The notes under the pieces are model-generated. The model was not told the origin of the DNA, did no database searches, and worked only from the letters and a program-made list of their open reading frames with translations. Shown here in pieces: positions 2,269-43,330 of a DNA stretch of 64,000 bases (its first letter is position 1; every line of letters starts with the position of its first letter). This stretch comes from Sporosarcina sp. NCCP-2716 (lineage in GTDB: Bacteria > Bacillota > Bacilli > Bacillales_A > Planococcaceae). The stretch covers positions 131,351 to 195,350 of the forward strand of contig NZ_BRCF01000002.1 of assembly GCF_023707985.1 (NCBI RefSeq). Direction: 5' to 3'. Position numbers and translations under genes: made by a program.

Positions 2269-2362
2269 CATGCAGGGGGCTTTACGGGGTTTGCACAGAT
2301 GCCGATATAATGGGTATCTATTGAAACGTCTCTCAACAACTATTTCAGGATGAGGTGCACGC

Positions 2363-5176
2363 GTGCGCAAACAAGGGATTCGGAATTCTTTCATTAAAAT
2401 CATCACACTTCTTTTCGCTGTCATGATGGTGCTGCTCGGCTGTGCGTACTTCTACAGTACGTCGGCCATCCAGAAGAACGAGGCAGCGCTGAAGCAGCAG
2501 ACGGAAAAGGCAGAAGTGATCGGGGATCTGTCGGACAGCATCTCCAATCTGTTCTTCCGGGCGCGCGGGTTCTATGCGTTCAAAATGGAGAGCGAACTGG
2601 ATATGGCGTACGAAACCCTCGGTCATATCCGGGAGGAGAACGAGCGCCTGCTGGAGCTGCCGCTGACCGATAAGGAGAAACAGTTCGCACAGGAGATCAT
2701 GGTGTTCATCGACCATTACGAGTCGGCCGTGCTGCCGGCAGCCGTCCAGCTGGTTGAAGATGATAACTATGAAGGGCTGCGCGAACTGTCCAGCAGCGGT
2801 GCCAACTTGTCCGTCAACCAATTCATCAAGTATGCGGATCGGTATGGCAAACAAGCGGATGATGCCAGGGATGAGTTCTACAAACAGTCCGAGCAGCAGC
2901 TGAATCTGCTGTACATCACCATGGCAGCGATCGGCGTAGGCGGCCTGCTGTTCCTCATCCTGCTCAGCTGGCGTGTTGTCCGCCGTCTCATTACCCCCAT
3001 CGAACTGATGACCGCTGCGACCGAGCGGTACGTGGAGGACCAAGACGTCAATTATACGCCGGACAACCGTCAGGATGAGATCGGTTCCCTGTCCCGTTCG
3101 TTTGCCGGCATGATGGGGACCATCCAGGTCAAGGAACAGGAACTCGTCGCCCAGAATGAGGAACTGCTGTCACAGCAGGACGAACTCCTTTCCCAGCAGG
3201 ATGAGCTGTTCAGCCATCAGCGTCAGCTGGAGGATGCGCTGTCGGAAGCCCGCTATGCAAAAATCCGGATGGAGCGCTACAACGGGCTGAGCCATGAGAT
3301 CTCGTTCTCCGACAATATCCGGGAAATTGCAGAAGCGACATTGCGCTACTTGGATACGCTGTTCGTCATCGACAAAGGGATCGTCTACGTGCCGGCGAAC
3401 GACCTGCATGTGCTGCATGGCATCTCCGAGGAGGCGTATGGTGCATACGATGAAGGCCGGTCGCTCGAAGCGATGGATCGGCTGACGACGGAACCGTACT
3501 TCCAGCTGGAACGGACTCTTGACGATGGGACGGCCGTCTACGATCTGTTCGCCGGGCCTGCGGTGGAAGGCGGTTCGTACAATGCCCTGTTCGTGCTCAC
3601 CCGCCGCCACCGGCCGTTCTCCGAAGACGATCAGGAGGATTTGTACAGTTTGACGAAGCGTGTGGCCCTCGCCATCGACCGGGCCGATCAGTACAATACG
3701 ATCCGGCGGGAACGCCAGCTGAACCAGACGATCCTCGACAACCTCGCGGAAGGGGTGCAGTTCATCTCCCAGGAGGAGGCTCCCGTCCAAGTGAACCATG
3801 CGCTGGCGAACTTGCTGCAGCTGCCGGCAGAGGAACTTGCGATGCCGGACTGGGCGGAGCGGCTAGCGGCCCTTACGGAAGAGCCGGACAGCTTGCTGCA
3901 GTTCACCCGCCAGGCGCTCGACGGACAGGCGGACGGATTGGCGGAAACGGTCTATACACTTGCCGGTGATTCCCCGAAAGTGATCGCTCTTTACCGGTCG
4001 GCTGTCCATTACGGCGGCGACCGGATCGGCACGTTGTTCGTACACCGCGACATTACGCAGGCGTTCGAAGTCGATAAGATGAAAACCGAACTCGTCTCCA
4101 CTGTCAGCCACGAACTGCGGACCCCTTTGTCGAGCATCCTCGGCTTCACTGAGCTGCTGATCGGCAAGGTGATGGACCGCGACCGGCAGTCCCGCTATCT
4201 GGACGCCATCTATAAGGAAGCGAAGCGGCTCACGTCGCTCATCAATGATTTCCTCGATGTGCAGCGTATGGAATCGGGCAATCAGGAGTATATGATGCAA
4301 GAAGTGGACGTGGCGGCAATTGCGGATCAGACAATCCAGACGCTGGCTGTCCAGCATTCCCATGATATCCGGCTCGTGCGTCTCACCGGCCGGACGCAAT
4401 GCCTGGCCGACGGGGACCGGCTGATCCAAGTATTCACCAATCTGCTCAGTAATGCGGTCAAGTTCTCTCCGGACGGCGGAACCGTCACGGTGACGCTCGA
4501 AGCCCAAGGGAACGACCTGAAAGTGACCGTGCAGGATGAAGGGATCGGGATTCCGGCCGATCAGCTGAAGCACATGTTCGAGAAGTTCTACCGATTCGAT
4601 AACACCTACCGGCGGAAGATCGGCGGGACCGGACTCGGGCTCGCCATCTGCCGGAAGATCATCGAAAAGCACGGCGGGGAGATTTCCGTCACTTCCGAGG
4701 AGAATGTCGGCACGGCCGTCAGCTTCACGCTGCCGCTATTGCCGCTGCAGGCACAACCCGCGGAGCATACCGGCCTCCCGGTGATCGCGGTCGTCGAAGA
4801 TGATGCGAGCATCGCACTCCTGCTGGAGGAGGAGCTGAAGAACCAGCAGTATGAAGTGATCCGCTTCCAGGATGTCGCCCACTCGCTCGCTTACGCTAAA
4901 GAGCATGTGCCGGACTGCATGGTGATCGATCTGCTGCTTCCTGAGGAGCGGACCGGCTGGGATCTGATTCGCCTGCTGAAGGAAGATCCCGTTACCAGCC
5001 GTATCCCGATCATCATTTCTTCTGCGCTGGAGCGTGAGGAGCAGCTGACCCGCAAGTTCTCGATCGACCATTACATGACGAAGCCGTATCCGCTGCGGAC
5101 ATTATCCGAGACTGTCGCCCAGGCATTGCATGCCGATGATGGACGGATTTTGTATCCGCTGCAGGAAGAGGAGTAA
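2363..5176 (+). CDS. Membrane-bound hybrid sensor histidine kinase
   Basis: 937-residue sensor kinase. Order: transmembrane helix about 11-33, extracytoplasmic alpha-helical sensor about 35-180, second helix about 181-203, HAMP about 204-256, coiled coil rich in Gln/Glu 255-300, GAF-like 305-445, PAS-like 450-565, HisKA with phospho-acceptor His583 (SHELRTPL), HATPase with N box (FTNLLSNAVKFSPDGG), G1 (DEGIGIP) and G2 (GGTGLGL), and a C-terminal receiver with acceptor Asp856. Start is GTG at 2363 behind GGATGAGGTG; a TATAAT lies at 2306-2311 but no convincing -35. The attached receiver and the two convergent response-regulator genes suggest a multistep phosphorelay; the stimulus is unknown. 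Confidence 0.93.
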   Translation: MRKQGIRNSFIKIITLLFAVMMVLLGCAYFYSTSAIQKNEAALKQQTEKAEVIGDLSDSISNLFFRARGFYAFKMESELDMAYETLGHIREENERLLELPLTDKEKQFAQEIMVFIDHYESAVLPAAVQLVEDDNYEGLRELSSSGANLSVNQFIKYADRYGKQADDARDEFYKQSEQQLNLLYITMAAIGVGGLLFLILLSWRVVRRLITPIELMTAATERYVEDQDVNYTPDNRQDEIGSLSRSFAGMMGTIQVKEQELVAQNEELLSQQDELLSQQDELFSHQRQLEDALSEARYAKIRMERYNGLSHEISFSDNIREIAEATLRYLDTLFVIDKGIVYVPANDLHVLHGISEEAYGAYDEGRSLEAMDRLTTEPYFQLERTLDDGTAVYDLFAGPAVEGGSYNALFVLTRRHRPFSEDDQEDLYSLTKRVALAIDRADQYNTIRRERQLNQTILDNLAEGVQFISQEEAPVQVNHALANLLQLPAEELAMPDWAERLAALTEEPDSLLQFTRQALDGQADGLAETVYTLAGDSPKVIALYRSAVHYGGDRIGTLFVHRDITQAFEVDKMKTELVSTVSHELRTPLSSILGFTELLIGKVMDRDRQSRYLDAIYKEAKRLTSLINDFLDVQRMESGNQEYMMQEVDVAAIADQTIQTLAVQHSHDIRLVRLTGRTQCLADGDRLIQVFTNLLSNAVKFSPDGGTVTVTLEAQGNDLKVTVQDEGIGIPADQLKHMFEKFYRFDNTYRRKIGGTGLGLAICRKIIEKHGGEISVTSEENVGTAVSFTLPLLPLQAQPAEHTGLPVIAVVEDDASIALLLEEELKNQQYEVIRFQDVAHSLAYAKEHVPDCMVIDLLLPEERTGWDLIRLLKEDPVTSRIPIIISSALEREEQLTRKFSIDHYMTKPYPLRTLSETVAQALHADDGRILYPLQEEE

Positions 5177-5211: not shown

Positions 5212-5220
5212 GTTTTGGTG

Positions 5221-5400
5221 CTTGAGCGTTTCCCGTTGTTGCTTGAGCGTTTCCTCCTGCTGCTTGAGCGTTTCCTCCTGCTGCTTGAGCGTTTCCTCTG
5301 GCGCTTGAGCGTTCCCCGCTGCTGCTTGAGCGCTTCTCCTGTTGCTTGAGCGTTCCACGCGGGTGCTTGAGCGTTTCTCCTGTCACTTGAGCGTTCCCCC
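5221..5400 (+). repeat. Family A repeat array, 9 units, 20-21 bp period
   Basis: The word CTTGAGCG occurs at 5221, 5242, 5263, 5284, 5304, 5325, 5345, 5366 and 5386, so steps are 21,21,21,20,21,20,21,20. Eight or nine bases are constant in each unit; the rest is pyrimidine-rich and variable. The array lies in the gap between two convergent terminators. The step is not a multiple of three, and the open frames across it on the minus strand have no start site or database-like features, so coding is unlikely. A related array is at 43133-43330. Confidence 0.9.
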
Positions 5401-19823: not shown

Positions 19824-21074
19824 TTATTCTTTCTGTTCCAACGCGCTGCTTTTCAGCCATCTAACATCGTTGCCGGCCGGACTCTGGAAGATGCGCAGCC
19901 CGAAGTCTTCGACAACAGCGAACAGATGATCGAAGATATCCGCCTGGATCGTTTCATAGACGGCGAACTGCGTCGTCTTCGCAAACGCATAGATCTGCAG
20001 CGGCAGCCCGTCCTTATCCGAAGCGAGCTGGCGGGCGATGAGCGCCGCATCCTGGTCGATCTGCGGATGATTCCTCAAGTATTGGGTGATATACATCCGG
20101 AATACGCCGATATTCGTCAGGGCGCGGCCGTTAATGCCCTTCCCTTCCACGATGCCGTGCGCTTCGTTGTAGGAGGCGATCTCCTTTTCCCGGCTGCCGA
20201 TGTAGGCTGCCAGAAGGTCGATCTGTTTGAAACGTTCGATCATCTCCGGCGTGCAGAACCGGATGCTCGTCATGTCGATGGTCAGCGAACGCATGAGCCG
20301 GCGGCCGCCGGATTCCTGCATACCCCGCCAGTTTTTGAACGAACTGGAGATCAGTGCATAGCTCGGGATCATCGTTACGGTGCGGTCGAAGTTCTGCACC
20401 ATCACCGTATTCAGCGAAATGTCGATCACTTCCCCGTCCGCCTCGTAATTCGGCATCTCGATCCAGTCGCCGACCCGTACCATGTCGTTCGCCGACAGCT
20501 GGATCCCCGCAACGAGACCGAGCAGCGAATCTTTGAACACGAGCAGGAAGACAGCCGACAGCGCACCGATTCCGCTTAGCAGGATGGCCGGACTCTCGCC
20601 CACCCATCTTGCAATGACGATGATGACACCGACAATGATGACGACCAGCTTGATCACCTGGATATAGCCTTTGATCGGCTTCGTTTTTGAAATGTCATAC
20701 GTCTGATAAATATCATTCAGCACACTCAGCAGCCGGCTGATCGCTACAAGCATCACGACGACCAAATACGTCAGTGCCGCCGTCTCGATCGCATGCTGAT
20801 ACGCTGGAAACGCTGGAGCCGATGAATAGATGATCAGCGCCGGCACGAAGTGGGACATCACACGGAACACATTCCGCTTCAGCAAGTATTCATCCCACCG
20901 GAAGCGGTGTTTCTTCAGAAAATGCGTAATCAGGCGGATCAGCACTTTTTTCGTTATCAGGTTGGCAATCAGGCAGAGGAGCGCAATCCCCGCGATGAGG
21001 ATTATGTATGATAATGCATTCGCCATCACTACGCTCATCCCATAGCCCAACAGCCAGTGGCGAATCAGACTCAC
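19824..21074 (-). CDS. MscS/YbdG-type mechanosensitive channel
   Basis: About 416-residue channel with five hydrophobic segments between residues 10 and 175, a pore region (LLSGIGALSAVFLLVFKDSL) and MscS beta domain (DWIEMPNYEADGEVIDISL, MIPSYAL). The insertion after the beta domain and the long C-terminal part place it with the YbdG/MscM group, which in E. coli gives miniconductance. Start is GTG at 21074 because GGAGGG lies 7 nt upstream; a TTG at 21092 lacks a site. First gene of a two-channel operon; repeats start about 150 nt upstream of it. Confidence 0.9.
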   Translation of the reverse strand: MSLIRHWLLGYGMSVVMANALSYIILIAGIALLCLIANLITKKVLIRLITHFLKKHRFRWDEYLLKRNVFRVMSHFVPALIIYSSAPAFPAYQHAIETAALTYLVVVMLVAISRLLSVLNDIYQTYDISKTKPIKGYIQVIKLVVIIVGVIIVIARWVGESPAILLSGIGALSAVFLLVFKDSLLGLVAGIQLSANDMVRVGDWIEMPNYEADGEVIDISLNTVMVQNFDRTVTMIPSYALISSSFKNWRGMQESGGRRLMRSLTIDMTSIRFCTPEMIERFKQIDLLAAYIGSREKEIASYNEAHGIVEGKGINGRALTNIGVFRMYITQYLRNHPQIDQDAALIARQLASDKDGLPLQIYAFAKTTQFAVYETIQADIFDHLFAVVEDFGLRIFQSPAGNDVRWLKSSALEQKE

Positions 21075-21220
21075 AGCTTTCCCTCCAGACAATCCGGTTC
21101 TCCGGCCGCACGGCGGCGGCCTGCACTTGACGTTATGGTTTCTTAGTATAACAGAAATCGGACGCCGCTTCTTTCATTCCGCATTCGCGGCGGGCGTGGT
21201 GAGGCGAGGTGTGGCGGCTC

Positions 21221-21636
21221 TTGTGACCGGACGTGCGCGTTTTGGGTATCGACGGGCATTAGGGAGCCGCCTTTGTGACCGGACGTGTGCGTTTTGGATG
21301 TCGACGGTCTATAGAGAGCCGGCCTTGTGACCGGACGTGTGCATTTCAGGTGTCGCCGGGCAATAGAGAGCGGCCCTAGTGACCGGACGTGTGCATTTCG
21401 GGTGTCTGCGGGCAATAGAGAGCCGGCCTTGTGACCGGACGTGGGCATTTGGGGTGTTGGCGGGCACTAGGAAGCCGGCCTTGTGACCGGGCATGCGCGT
21501 TTCGGGTGTCATCGGGCAATAGGGAGCCGGCCTTGTGACCGGGCATGTGCATTTTAGATGTCGACGGGCATTAGGGAGCCGGCCTTGTGACCGGGCACGG
21601 GCATGATGCAGGTCGTCGGTAACAAGGAAAGTGCCT
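21221..21636 (+). repeat. Family B array 1, 8 units, exact 52-bp period
   Basis: Units begin (T)TGTGACCG at 21221, 21273, 21325, 21377, 21429, 21481, 21533 and 21585, each step exactly 52 bp. In most units a second conserved word, GGGCAATAG or GGGCATTAG, begins 33 bp after the first. The two words are near reverse complements, so each unit is a quasi-palindrome; between them is GGACGTGTGCATTTC-like sequence. 52 is not divisible by 3, so tandem coding is excluded. Confidence 0.92.
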
Positions 21637-21773
21637 TACTGTCCGATACCCCGAGCGGATCATACGCCCGGTCAAAAGGCGGAGCCCACCATTCAATCTC
21701 GGTTTTGAATTGCTGAAGTGCACATTTATCGCGAACTTATTATCTTTGGAGCATATAACATCTTGCCGCGGGA
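21631..21773 (+). repeat. Approx. 145-bp element, copy 1 (forward)
   Basis: Matches the reverse complement of 23509-23654. Identical blocks in the same order: CCGATAC, GTCAAAAGGCGGAG, CCCACCATTCAA, TTGCTGAA, TCGCGA and a CGCGGGA end. Copy 1 lacks a 10-bp duplication of the GCGGAGC region seen in copy 2 and has about 12 extra bases (TCTCGGTTTTGA region). Confidence 0.85.
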
Positions 21774-21840
21774 CAAAACTGCTCCGGCAACTGACTGAAT
21801 GCGACGGAACAAGCGCCGTCTGGGCAGAAGAAGTTTGCTT

Positions 21841-22048
21841 TAGTGACCAGGTGCGTACATTTCACAGGACGTTGGGCAATAGGAAGCAACTCTAGTGACC
21901 GCAAGTGTATACTCTGCGCGTTATCGGATAATAGAGAGCAGCCCTTGTGACCGTCCCTGTGCATTCAGACAGCGGACAGGCAATAAGGAGCGTCCATAGC
22001 GACCGGGCGTATACAATCTGCGTGTTGATGGGCATTAGACGCACTCCT
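21841..22048 (+). repeat. Family B array 2, 4 units, 52-bp period
   Basis: Units start TAGTGACC at 21841 and 21893, TTGTGACC at 21945 and TAGCGACC at 21997, steps of exactly 52 bp, each with a (G)GGCAATAG-like word 33 bp later. More diverged than array 1 and out of phase with it (256 bp from the last unit). Confidence 0.85.
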
Positions 22049-22080
22049 TTCTCGGCGCAAGCGACAGCAGAAATATGAAA

Positions 22081-22119
22081 ATAAAAAAGCATTCACCAGA
22101 CAAATGTCCAGTGAATGCT
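22081..22119 (-). terminator. Terminator after NERD gene
   Basis: AGCATTCAC/GTGAATGCT stem with further inner pairing; read leftward it ends TTTTTTAT. Confidence 0.88.
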
Positions 22120-22129
22120 CGTCCGCCAA

Positions 22130-23059
22130 TCAGCGGTTTTTCTCAACTATATAGTATCGATATCTGCGTCCGCCACTTGCTTTATAATGGCGGCTCAGCA
22201 CGCGGCGGATCGACTTGCGAGAATCGATAATACGGCACCAATCTTGTATGAGGCCTGTTGTAATCCGCTTATCCGGAAACAATCGCACAAATTCGCCAAC
22301 ACTCCGAAGGACACTATGTTCCGCTGATTCTGCGGTTTCACATGTTGCACATGTCACCAACTGAGCGCCCTTCCGTTCCATGAATGACCGGCAGTCTCGG
22401 CACAAAATGCCCTTCCGCAGTTGAATATACTCATACTTCGGAAGCCGTTCATTTGGCGGATTCGGCAAATGCCTTTCGCGCAAACGTTCCGCGATCTTCC
22501 CGTGCCTGCTGTCCAGAATGGAAGGTGTTCGATCAATGTGTGCCATGAATCGCTTCAATTGAGATGGCAGAAGGATCAGACCCTCCGCAGGCGCCTGATA
22601 CAGCGTGAATTGGTCGTTTACAAACGCGAGATATCCCTGTATCGGTATCTGGAATCCTAAGGAATTCAGCAGAGACCGCAACAGGGTGACACTGCGATTG
22701 AGCTGATGCAGGGGATTGAGGATCTCTTGTCCGCTCGCAAGAACCCGGAATTCCCCGTTTTCAAACACGTACTCTCCCTCATAATTCTTCACTTCAAACA
22801 AGTAGATCTTTTTCTCGGAAATCATCAGTGTATCAATCTGAAAAATGGAATGCTGATACTCCAGGCAAAGATCACGCAGCAGCAAGACTCCATTTTGAAT
22901 TGTCTCCGTCAGTGAATCGAACCGCTTTTCTCCTTCAATACCTTTTTTCAAGTTCTGGAACCTTCGACTCTCTGCCTCCGGTATCGCCATCCGGCTATCC
23001 AGCAGCTGCATCAAACTAAGTTCCCTGCCGTCCAATCTGTCTTTATATATGATCGTAAT
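22130..23059 (-). CDS. NERD-domain (nuclease-related) protein with zinc ribbon
   Basis: About 309 residues. A NERD domain (roughly 40-150) carries the PD-(D/E)xK core: Asp in IFQIDTLMIS and FEVKNYEGEY with E-x-K. A CRDC...CATC zinc ribbon (about 225-250) and a basic C-terminal domain (SIRRVLSRHYKASGG) follow, the layout of Bacillales NERD proteins. Such proteins are predicted endonucleases of unknown role. Start: TTG at 23035 has no ribosome site, whereas ATT at 23059 has GGAGAGG 6 nt upstream and adds MTIIYKDR, like the N-termini of relatives; ATT is therefore preferred. The gene looks more AT-rich than its neighbours and is enclosed by repeats. Confidence 0.85.
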   Translation of the reverse strand: MTIIYKDRLDGRELSLMQLLDSRMAIPEAESRRFQNLKKGIEGEKRFDSLTETIQNGVLLLRDLCLEYQHSIFQIDTLMISEKKIYLFEVKNYEGEYVFENGEFRVLASGQEILNPLHQLNRSVTLLRSLLNSLGFQIPIQGYLAFVNDQFTLYQAPAEGLILLPSQLKRFMAHIDRTPSILDSRHGKIAERLRERHLPNPPNERLPKYEYIQLRKGILCRDCRSFMERKGAQLVTCATCETAESAEHSVLRSVGEFVRLFPDKRITTGLIQDWCRIIDSRKSIRRVLSRHYKASGGRRYRYYIVEKNR

Positions 23060-23245
23060 GTCCGTCCTCTCCCCTCATCTCATTTTGCTATCTCAGGAAG
23101 GAGACACTCTTCGGCATGAACCGCTGAGTTGGGGGGAGTCTCGTGTCTTTCTCTATTCTCCATGCAGATTGTAAAACCCTTCTTTTTCGTTAAAATAATC
23201 TGAATTACTATACGGACGCAAATTTCAGATGGAAAGCAGAAGCTT

Positions 23246-23406
23246 ACTGCCCGAAATATCCCGAAATACATTACCGGGCAATCAAACCGGTCCTTTCAGA
23301 CTGTAGACTGCCTGTATTTACTTCAGCAGGCGCTTGAGCCGTCTCCTACTGCCCACCAGCGCTCAAAATACTTGTGTCTGGTCACTAAGATTGCTTCCTA
23401 GTGACC
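23246..23406. repeat. Scattered family B palindromes
   Basis: TACTGCCCG and CGGGCAATC face each other at 23246-23286; GGTCACTA/TAGTGACC form a perfect 8-bp palindrome with an 11-nt loop at 23380-23406. A family A-like GCTTGAGC and its inverse GCGCTCAA occur between them (23332-23365). The rest of 23060-23330 shows no gene or structure. Confidence 0.6.
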
Positions 23407-23508
23407 GAGAACCTCAACATCACATGCGATCGGGGACAACAGCCGCCCCCTATTGCCCAGCCGACATCCCATCTTTCCTTTTCGGTAAGTTCGCATATCC
23501 AACCCTGC

Positions 23509-23654
23509 TCCCGCGACACGCCGCTCCATGCATCGGCGGCAGAATGCTCGCGACATATCCGCCTTTCAGCAATTTCTTGAATGGTGGGCTCCGCTCTGCT
23601 CCGCCTTTTGACTAGGCGTCGTATTCGCACGAAGTATCGGGCAGTAGGGCGCAC
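23509..23654 (-). repeat. Approx. 145-bp element, copy 2 (reverse)
   Basis: Inverted partner of 21631-21773. Read leftward it starts GTGCGCCCTACTGCCCG, which also carries a family B word, and ends CGCGGGA. Core blocks of 14 and 12 bp are identical to copy 1. Confidence 0.85.
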
Positions 23655-23710
23655 TCTTTCTTACCGACGACCTATCGACTTGACGACCCCGGTCACAAAG
23701 AACGCTCCCA

Positions 23711-23968
23711 AGTGACCGAAAACTCCCGATTCACACACGACCGGCACTAGAGCATCCCCCTAGTGACCGATAGCCCCCGATTCACACACGACCGGGCACT
23801 AGAGCATCCCCATGTGACCGAGAACTCCCGATTCGCACACGACCAGGCACTAGAGCATCTCCCTAGTGACCGATAGCCCCCGATTCACACACGACCGGGC
23901 ACTAGCGCCCACCCTTAGTGACCGATGATCCCCAATTCGCCCTCAACCGGGCACTAGACCCGCCTACC
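23711..23968 (-). repeat. Family B array 3 (inverted), 5 units, 51-52 bp period
   Basis: AGTGACCG-type words at 23711, 23762, 23813, 23865 and 23917 (steps 51,51,52,52), with GGGCACTAG about 33 bp into most units. Read on the minus strand each unit is CTAGTGCCCGG then TCGTGTGTGAATC, which aligns with array 1 (CTTGTGACCGG then ACGTGTGCATTTC), so the array is inverted relative to arrays 1 and 2. Confidence 0.85.
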
Positions 23969-23989
23969 ACAGCGTATCCGAGCGCACGT

Positions 23990-24024
23990 AAAAAGCCCCT
24001 TTCCGAGAAACTCGGAAAGAGGCT
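23990..24024 (-). terminator. Terminator after rpsI
   Basis: AGCC(T/C)CTTTCCGAG pairs with CTCGGAAAG(G/A)GGCT around a 3-nt loop; read leftward it ends TTTTTAC. Confidence 0.9.
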
Positions 24025-24037
24025 GGGGATGCAAAGA

Positions 24038-24430
24038 TTATCGCTTCGAGAACTGTGGTGCACGACGTGCGCCTTTGAGACCGTATTTCTTACGTTCCTT
24101 CATACGTGGGTCACGTGTCAGGAGACCAGCTGATTTAAGAGCTGGACGGAAGTCAGGGTCTACAGTGAGCAATGCACGAGCTACGCCGTGACGGATTGCG
24201 CCGGCTTGGCCAGTGTATCCGCCGCCGCTTACGTTGACGTGGATATCGTAGCTGCCGAGTGTACCAGTTGTAACAAGCGGCTGCTTGATGATCTCGCGAA
24301 GTGTTTCGAATGGTACGTAGTCTTCCGCGTCGCGTTTGTTGATGGTGATCTTGCCTTCACCAGGAACTAAACGTACACGTGCTGTTGAACTTTTACGTCG
24401 GCCAGTGCCGATATATTGTACTTGTGCCAA
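24038..24430 (-). CDS. rpsI: 30S ribosomal protein S9
   Basis: 130-residue uS9, full length, ending in the invariant basic tail PQFSKR that reaches the P-site tRNA. Signature [15 protein letters not shown] is present. Lies 20 nt downstream of rplM with its own ribosome site (GAGGAGG); the rplM-rpsI pair is conserved throughout bacteria and is closed here by a terminator. Confidence 0.98.
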
Positions 24431-43132: not shown

Positions 43133-43330
43133 CTTGAGCGGTTGACAGGGAGGTATGGACGGTTCTTACATACCATGAGCGCTTCGTCACATGCCTCGAG
43201 CGGTTCTCGTGATGCTTGAGCGCTGCGTCATAATGCTTGAGCGTTCGGAGCGGCGCTAGAGCGGTTCTCCCCTTCCCTTGAGCGGCTGCCGGGCATCATG
43301 AGCGCTTCCCGGCTCTGCTTGAGCGTTCAT
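43133..43330 (+). repeat. Family A repeat array, 10 units, alternating 20/21-bp steps
   Basis: Words of type C(T/A)(T/C/A)GAGCG start at 43133, 43174, 43195, 43215, 43236, 43256, 43277, 43297 and 43318, with a degenerate copy (TATGGACGG) at 43154. Steps alternate 21/20 along nearly the whole array. It fills the tuf-rpsJ gap between the tuf terminator and the S10 hairpin; nothing else is visible in this 500-nt gap. Confidence 0.9.

What the first reader, a model, noticed from the sequence alone, without database searches (positions are those of the whole stretch)
21221..23968. Mirror-image repeat island centred on a NERD nuclease gene
Seen: 52-bp arrays and a pair of about 145-bp elements occur on both sides of one gene in opposite orientation, giving array > element > array > NERD gene < palindromes < element < array. 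No transposase is present. Known: REP palindromes can be flanked around and maintained by RAYT transposases. Inference: a NERD-type nuclease could play a comparable role for its own quasi-palindromic repeats, or the island could be a nucleic-acid defence or silencing cassette. I know of no described system of this form.
Basis: partly seen in the sequence, partly recalled or inferred. Interest (0 to 1): 0.8.

Follow-up and report, generated by a model that had tools for sequence, protein, structure and literature searches.

The report
Nuclease genes with matching phased repeats
A little-studied kind of bacterial nuclease gene is usually bordered by its own evenly spaced DNA repeats, whose spacing and sequence follow the protein's family tree, which points to an undescribed nuclease-and-repeat partnership.

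Summary
The island is a NERD gene (22130-23035, minus strand) between 52-bp arrays of quasi-palindromes, with an inverted pair of a second element. The repeats are not confined to it: by my clustering 16 other sites in this genome carry 52-bp arrays. Yet NERD genes of this architecture (NERD domain, zinc ribbon, winged-helix-like tail) have a tandem array of about 21 or 52 bp period within 1.5 kb in 86 of 90 distinct loci (68 of 90 at a stricter score), against 5 of 80 random 3-kb windows (4 of 80). Periods are about two or five helical turns, and the NERD tree splits by class (one branch, 100/100). Among 21-bp arrays, motif similarity rises with protein identity (Mantel rho 0.35, 0 of 2000 permutations as high). 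This genome has four such NERDs, each beside its own repeat family. I infer a sequence-specific nuclease that binds its cognate phased array and drives its in-place growth and rare spread: REPIN-RAYT-like in logic, not homologous. Coupling is well supported; binding, cleavage, spread, silencing and defence are untested. One genome (G049) has 52-bp arrays but no close NERD.

The parts
22130..23035 (-). NERD nuclease gene (301 aa): NERD domain, CxxC...CxxC zinc ribbon, C-terminal winged-helix-like tail
   Evidence: Pfam NERD E 2.5e-17; D68, E81, K83, C212, C215, C229, C232 invariant in 30 aligned homologues. The winged-helix reading is inferred from the sequence pattern, no tool confirmed it.
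21215..21645 (+). left outer 52-bp array, eight 29-bp palindromes at 21253 to 21617
   Evidence: TRF, palindrome scan
21610..21820 (+). left copy of the second ('hub') element; core about 21660-21760; outer limits approximate
   Evidence: inverted repeat I1; aligned with 11 other copies, the right window copy included
21821..22005 (+). left inner 52-bp array, palindromes at 21821, 21873, 21925, 21977
   Evidence: palindrome scan
23275..23459 (.). degenerate 52-bp palindromes on the 5' side of the NERD gene (23275, 23327, 23379, 23431)
   Evidence: palindrome scan, scores 15.5-30.3
23480..23673 (-). right copy of the hub element, inverted; outer limits approximate
   Evidence: inverted repeat I1
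23638..23958 (.). right outer 52-bp array
   Evidence: TRF 23707-23958; palindromes at 23638, 23690, 23741, 23844, 23896
5216..5399 (+). 21-bp array of the CTTGAGCG family, the family that flanks another NERD of this genome (C4:240363)
   Evidence: TRF; sequence; cognate locus L146
43130..43330 (+). degenerate 21-bp array of the TTGAGCG/ATGAGCG type
   Evidence: TRF 43176-43247; sequence; limits by eye

Best explanation
Shown: NERD-zinc-ribbon-tail genes of Bacilli are coupled to tandem arrays whose period is close to a whole number of DNA helical turns. Unit length follows the protein clade, and within the 21-bp class the repeated motif drifts with the protein. One genome can hold several such pairs, and at least two of the four families here are also dispersed at many other sites. 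Inferred: the tail and zinc ribbon read the repeat, protomers line up on one face of the DNA, and the NERD domain (PD-(D/E)XK type, recalled) nicks or cuts there. Repair of those breaks grows, shrinks and homogenises the array in place and occasionally seeds it elsewhere, so nuclease and repeats persist together as a REPIN-RAYT-like pair built from unrelated parts. I put the coupling itself at about 0.9; the number below is for the coupling plus this mechanism.
For: Array within 1.5 kb at 86 of 90 distinct NERD loci (85 of 90 with the flanks read on the other strand, 68 of 90 at TRF score 100 or more) against 5 of 80 random 3-kb windows (4 of 80 at score 100); Fisher for 86/90 v 5/80 is 1.7e-36. 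The 52-bp class is one branch of the 90-protein tree, 100/100, 0 of 500 shuffles as low. Motif-protein covariation: rho 0.35, 0 of 2000 permutations; mean motif similarity 0.29 at 20-25% identity, 0.86 above 80%. Spacing fixed while sequence varies: 62 of 75 exactly 52; 1098 of 1243 at 19-22, mean 20.7. Four NERDs in this genome beside four repeat families. Whole-unit copy-number changes at shared sites between two close species. Asp, Glu and Lys of the nuclease motif invariant.
Against: No binding or cleavage was measured. G049 has 52-bp arrays and TTGAGCGG arrays but no close cognate NERD, and the four L146-type relatives with 56-61% identity (G010, G020, G045, G450) have none of the TTGAGCG pattern. 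In the closest pair compared, all 9 sites have matching flanks in both genomes, so spread to new sites was not seen. Relatedness among genomes inflates the co-occurrence and Mantel figures. L203 and L275 have a NERD and no array within 1.5 kb. Arrays lie on both sides of the gene in only 42 of 90.
Confidence: 0.5

Rival explanations
1. The arrays are architectural or regulatory sites: the NERD protein binds phased repeats as a cooperative, perhaps bridging, DNA-binding protein (autoregulation at its own gene, chromosome folding or insulation elsewhere), and nuclease activity is secondary or lost.
For: Near-helical spacing of both classes; arrays next to the gene itself; dispersed arrays mostly between genes, 12 convergent, 11 tandem, 2 divergent of 25 classed.
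Against: Asp, Glu and Lys of the nuclease motif are invariant in all 30 aligned, which a pure binder would not need. Few divergent (promoter) sites.
Confidence: 0.28
2. A defence or interference cassette: arrays mark self DNA or hold the nuclease in check, and foreign DNA is attacked.
For: NERD domains occur in PglW and MAD6 defence proteins; weak matches here.
Against: Those matches cover the NERD part only, and both NCBIfam scores (19.4 and 14.7 bits) are far below their cut-offs (460 and 990). The window's NERD has no match in 50,697 phage records and one weak archaeal match in 72,556 plasmids (E 1e-5); a one-pattern scan of viral contigs with the family alignment found none. Several chromosomal copies per genome with dispersed arrays is unlike a defence island (my judgement).
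Confidence: 0.12
3. The arrays are ordinary satellites generated by replication slippage, and NERD genes merely sit in repeat-rich intergenic regions.
For: Copy number changes by whole units; random windows of other genera sometimes hold arrays (5 of 40).
Against: 86 of 90 against 5 of 80; unit length follows the protein clade; motif follows the protein.
Confidence: 0.05

Closest known systems
REPIN-RAYT (REPtron) systems
   Same: Short, often palindromic intergenic repeats dispersed over the genome, with copies beside the gene of a cognate nuclease; protein and repeat held to co-evolve (passages of PMC3116915; PMC8266576).
   Different: The enzyme there is a Y1/HuH transposase; here a NERD domain. 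REPs occur mostly as singlets or doublets with some tandem clusters; here as long tandem arrays with fixed spacing, and the 21-bp motifs are mostly not palindromic.
CRISPR arrays
   Same: Regular repeats of about 29 bp with 23-bp spacers beside a nuclease gene.
   Different: Spacers are related within arrays; no cas gene found; the 21-bp class has no separate spacer.
NERD-domain proteins (Pfam PF08378), e.g. SmdA, PglW
   Same: Same nuclease-related domain.
   Different: No repeat partner is mentioned in the passages I saw. SmdA is a membrane protein, and its authors say that the role of NERD in bacteria had to their knowledge never been studied (passages of PMC9040797).
Iterons and other phased operator arrays
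   Same: Direct repeats at about two helical turns bound by one protein (recalled, no call).
   Different: Those sit at origins or promoters; these are at many intergenic sites and beside a nuclease gene.

Membership tests
NERD domain family (PF08378) | Match above the curated cut-off | tested here: met
   63.8 bits against a cut-off of 22.1
REPIN-RAYT | Y1/HuH (IS200/IS605-type) transposase encoded beside the repeats | tested here: not met
   Pfam gives NERD for the long gene (other hits below cut-off) and nothing for six small island ORFs; neighbours are MscS, rpsI, rplM
REPIN-RAYT | 20-50 nt extragenic palindromes dispersed over the genome | tested here: met
   52-bp class only: 29-bp quasi-palindromes at 17 sites of this genome by my clustering
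REPIN-RAYT | Repeats flank the nuclease gene in different genomes | tested here: met
   86 of 90 NERD loci have an array within 1.5 kb on at least one side, 42 of 90 on both
REPIN-RAYT | Conserved tetranucleotide (most often GTAG) before the palindrome | not tested
   No systematic search was made
CRISPR-Cas | cas genes next to the array | tested here: not met
   No PADLOC match at E 0.01 for ten ORFs of and around the island; the NERD ORF matches only PglW weakly
CRISPR-Cas | Unique spacers of foreign origin | tested here: inconclusive
   Spacers of one array resemble each other, and alternate in another; spacers were not searched against phages
BREX/PglW or MADS defence | Full-length match to the defence protein | tested here: not met
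   15.8 bits to PglW (PADLOC); 19.4 bits to MAD6 and 14.7 to PglW (NCBIfam cut-offs 460 and 990), over the NERD part only
Known RNA families | Rfam match in the island | tested here: not met
   0 matches up to E 1 over 20900-24200

The most novel reading that the evidence does not exclude
A widespread, undescribed class of chromosomal nuclease-repeat systems in Bacilli: each NERD-zinc-ribbon-tail protein has its own DNA address, written as an array at about two or five helical turns beside its gene and, in many cases, scattered through the genome. Several independent pairs coexist in one chromosome, and protein and address evolve together.
Probability: 0.82. Interest if true: 0.9.

Novelty: categorically new. 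Interest (0 to 1): 0.86.

Why it matters
NERD proteins have been known mainly as a domain family whose role in bacteria was called unstudied (passages of PMC9040797). A matched DNA partner makes the activity directly testable. It would also be a second, unrelated solution to the repeat-plus-nuclease partnership seen in REPIN-RAYT, with a physical rule (near-whole helical turns). Repeat sequence and protein tail could be compared to read the recognition code.

Tried and rejected
Known RNA: no Rfam match. CRISPR: no cas gene found, spacers alike. Coding repeats: 52 is not a multiple of three. Island-only repeats: rejected by dispersed copies. Structure: the single-sequence AlphaFold2 model is unusable (pLDDT 36.2), so no fold search was made; the winged-helix and PD-(D/E)XK readings rest on sequence pattern and recall. 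Solved structures: one weak match, E 0.2, to an RNA polymerase subunit M chain at profile positions 219-252, the zinc-ribbon part. Literature: nine searches of the open-access library; no title or abstract start in their listings deals with NERD genes and repeat arrays. Of single papers I saw passages only. Subscription papers and most preprints are not covered.

Choices that affect counts: L134 was put in the 52-bp class by orthology (its array side is a contig end), and L160, L203 and L275 in the 21-bp class without an array within 1.5 kb (L160 has one about 1.5 kb away). The script labelled L220 and L226 '21' because shorter rows coexist; I put them in the 52-bp class because their 52-bp rows score higher. 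Some arrays counted are short (2.4-2.7 copies, TRF score 50-80), hence the stricter count. TRF is strand-sensitive: 86 of 90, 85 of 90. The motif finder was seeded on 7-mers recurring at 19-22 bp or multiples, which biases the spacing count. Motifs: 68 loci gave one, 62 were used. Control hits: 0 of 40 windows in the window's genus, 5 of 40 in other genera. Inverted repeats in 52-bp consensus units exceed all 40 shuffles in 6 of 13 NERD-side arrays only. In one search only five candidates per genome were scored, 150 of 579, and 46 per genome under stricter filters, so counts there are lower bounds.

Full report
What is in the window. The NERD gene at 22130-23035 (minus strand; Pfam NERD E 2.5e-17) lies between 52-bp arrays at 21215-21594 and 23707-23958, with an inner array and degenerate palindromes nearer the gene. 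A second element of roughly 145-200 bp occurs once on each side in opposite orientation (76-nt arms, 79% complementary). The 52-bp unit is a 29-bp odd quasi-palindrome (consensus CGGTCACTAGGGA...TCCCTAGTGACCG when both strands are pooled) plus a 23-bp spacer. In 17 sources scanned, 85 palindromes turned up in 10, and 62 of 75 successive spacings are exactly 52, although the spacer carries only about 0.1-0.7 bit per position. Nothing in Rfam matches, and neither Pfam nor PADLOC finds a transposase or cas gene among the ORFs tested.

The repeats are genome-wide. BLAST with the left array and with the element finds further copies on several contigs. A covariance model of two palindromes one unit apart gives 135 matches in this genome (150 of 579 candidates scored), which I cluster by eye into 17 sites, the window included. 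Of 34 stretches of this genome with dispersed arrays or element copies, none holds a NERD gene; one weak 14.4-bit hit in L026 was not pursued. The second element also sits beside a different array type of 20-21 bp period, CTTGAGCG or TTATGAGCG. A pattern for two TTGAGCG units matches 89 times in this genome and 0 times read backwards; 10 of 68 genus members have any match.

The link to NERD. Over 101 genomes the 52-bp model rings in five (G000, G004, G008, G028, G049). Close relatives of the window's NERD (over 200 bits) also occur in five: G000, G004, G008, G028 and G092; the next best match scores 75.2 bits. Fisher for that table is 6e-6, relatedness not corrected. Next to the close NERD, a period-52 array is present in G028, G008 and, with an unrelated repeat sequence in another family, G092; in G004 the contig ends 157 bases beyond the gene. 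A second NERD-like copy in G092 (C9, one stop inside) has only a two-copy 51-bp repeat nearby. G049 is the exception, with arrays and no close NERD. Within the genus the NERD of G008, G028 and G453 sits downstream of rpsI as here, so these are one inherited locus, not independent cases; G092 is at another locus.

The generalisation. More distant NERD proteins of the same architecture are flanked by arrays too, mostly of 20-21 bp. This genome has four NERD matches: the window's, and three others beside a GCGCGTATTC-type (one side), a CTTGAGCG and a TTATGAGCG array (both sides). A 30-protein profile finds the family in 82 of 398 genomes of the class, 41 of 145 genera. All 20 loci I picked from that list across families had an array by the criterion used, some of them short. 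Pooled, 102 loci give 90 distinct proteins, and 86 of 90 have an array of these periods within 1.5 kb. Misses: L134 (contig end), L160 (array about 1.5 kb away), L203, L275. At TRF score 100 or more it is 68 of 90; both sides, 42 of 90. Random regions from genomes of the same set: 5 of 80 3-kb windows, 4 of 80 at score 100. The loci were chosen by protein, not by repeats. In 20 rpsI loci of genus members, the one with a NERD downstream (G453) has a 52-bp array and the other 19 have neither within 1.5 kb.

Two classes, one split in the tree. Period-52 arrays belong to 13 loci; they lie on the 3' side of the gene in all 13 and on the 5' side as well only in the window's genome (with L220 and L226 reassigned by score). 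On a maximum-likelihood tree of the 90 proteins the 52-bp class (with L134 added by orthology) is one side of a single branch, support 100/100, in all 200 bootstrap trees, against 13.2 changes expected by shuffling. The tree program warns that L129 may join that group by long branches.

Motif follows protein. For 62 arrays of the 21-bp class, motif similarity correlates with protein identity (Mantel rho 0.349; highest of 2000 permutations 0.165). Mean similarity climbs from 0.29 at 20-25% identity to 0.43 at 40-50%, 0.67 at 60-80% and 0.86 above 80%. Shared descent of gene and neighbouring DNA can explain the top bins; at 30-60% identity the mean is still above all 5000 permutations (0.389 against a grand mean of 0.346).

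Spacing. In the 21-bp class 1098 of 1243 successive distances up to 70 are 19-22 bp, 108 are 40-43, mean single spacing 20.70 (the seed biases this). 20.7/2 and 52/5 both give about 10.4 bp, near the pitch of B-DNA (recalled). Different lineages with unrelated unit sequences keep the same unit length (51 or 52 in all 13), so length rather than sequence looks selected.

Turnover and place. Between G453 and G008 nine element-bearing or NERD loci were compared: the flanks align at all nine (main alignments 93-99% identical in eight, 80-90% in L317/L318), TRF calls an array in both genomes at eight (not in L322), and lengths differ by whole units: the rpsI-locus array has 5.6 and 4.6 copies, a 52-bp length difference. 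A 52-bp array also lies at one orthologous site in G049 and G028 (flanks 77-81% identical) with different repeat sequence. Arrays thus change in place; movement was not seen. The rpsI locus lacks the island in 19 of 20 other genus members looked at; in G058 rpsI is followed within 73 bases by the rhodanese, cwlD and mrp genes. Of 25 dispersed arrays of this genome that could be classed, 12 lie between convergent genes, 11 between tandem and 2 between divergent ones (ORF-based, approximate, a few arrays overlap a long ORF; 8 further sites could not be classed).

The second element. It occurs in 10 of 68 genus members, and these are the same 10 that have a NERD of the L146 type at 300 bits or more (Fisher 3.4e-12; relatedness not corrected, cut chosen after seeing the gap). 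Copies lie beside NERD genes in several of them. Its role is unknown; it may be a spacer or core of the array in this subgroup.

How it probably works. Shown: coupling, class split, motif covariation, fixed spacing, unit turnover, invariant Asp, Glu and Lys with four Cys. Inferred: sequence recognition by the tail and zinc ribbon, alignment of protomers on one DNA face, cleavage in the array, growth and spread by repair. The logic matches REPIN-RAYT, where a REP was found beside every RAYT examined (passages of PMC3116915), but the defining Y1/HuH transposase was not found, so it is not a member.

Weak points. No experiment. G049 has two repeat families without close NERDs, one of them carrying IS3-like insertions. 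Four genomes with the nearest L146-type NERDs (56-61% identity) lack the TTGAGCG pattern; their own arrays read GCTCAAG or GATCAAG, so either the motif has shifted or the strict pattern missed them. No defence evidence: the window's NERD has no phage-record match and one weak archaeal plasmid match, and the viral-contig scan found no relative.

Noticed in passing
L330 1935-2855 and L331 1963-2883 (G049): An ORF of 306 aa with the same start, IS3-transposase-like by recall, interrupts two separate TTGAGCGG arrays, as if these arrays were insertion targets.
   Followed up: partly
L109 about 2351-3100 (G049): A 52-bp array is closely followed by 21-bp GAGTCGGTGGTAAA units, the family that flanks a NERD of that genome (L149).
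   Followed up: no
L109 (G049) and L113 (G028): 52-bp arrays lie at the same orthologous site in two species (flanks 77-81% identical) but with different repeat sequences, suggesting old sites with changing units.
   Followed up: partly
window 21610-21820 and 23480-23673; L042-L048: The hub element is shared by 52-bp and 21-bp arrays and found in exactly the 10 of 68 genus members with one NERD subtype.
   Followed up: partly
L246 2573-2693 (G311, random control region): A chance-sampled region holds a 2.3-copy 52-bp repeat with a different palindrome (AAATGTC...GACATTT).
   Followed up: no
L225, L228, L028: Higher-order repeats (176 bp, 103/309 bp, alternating 104-bp pairs) inside arrays, a sign of block duplication.
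   Followed up: no
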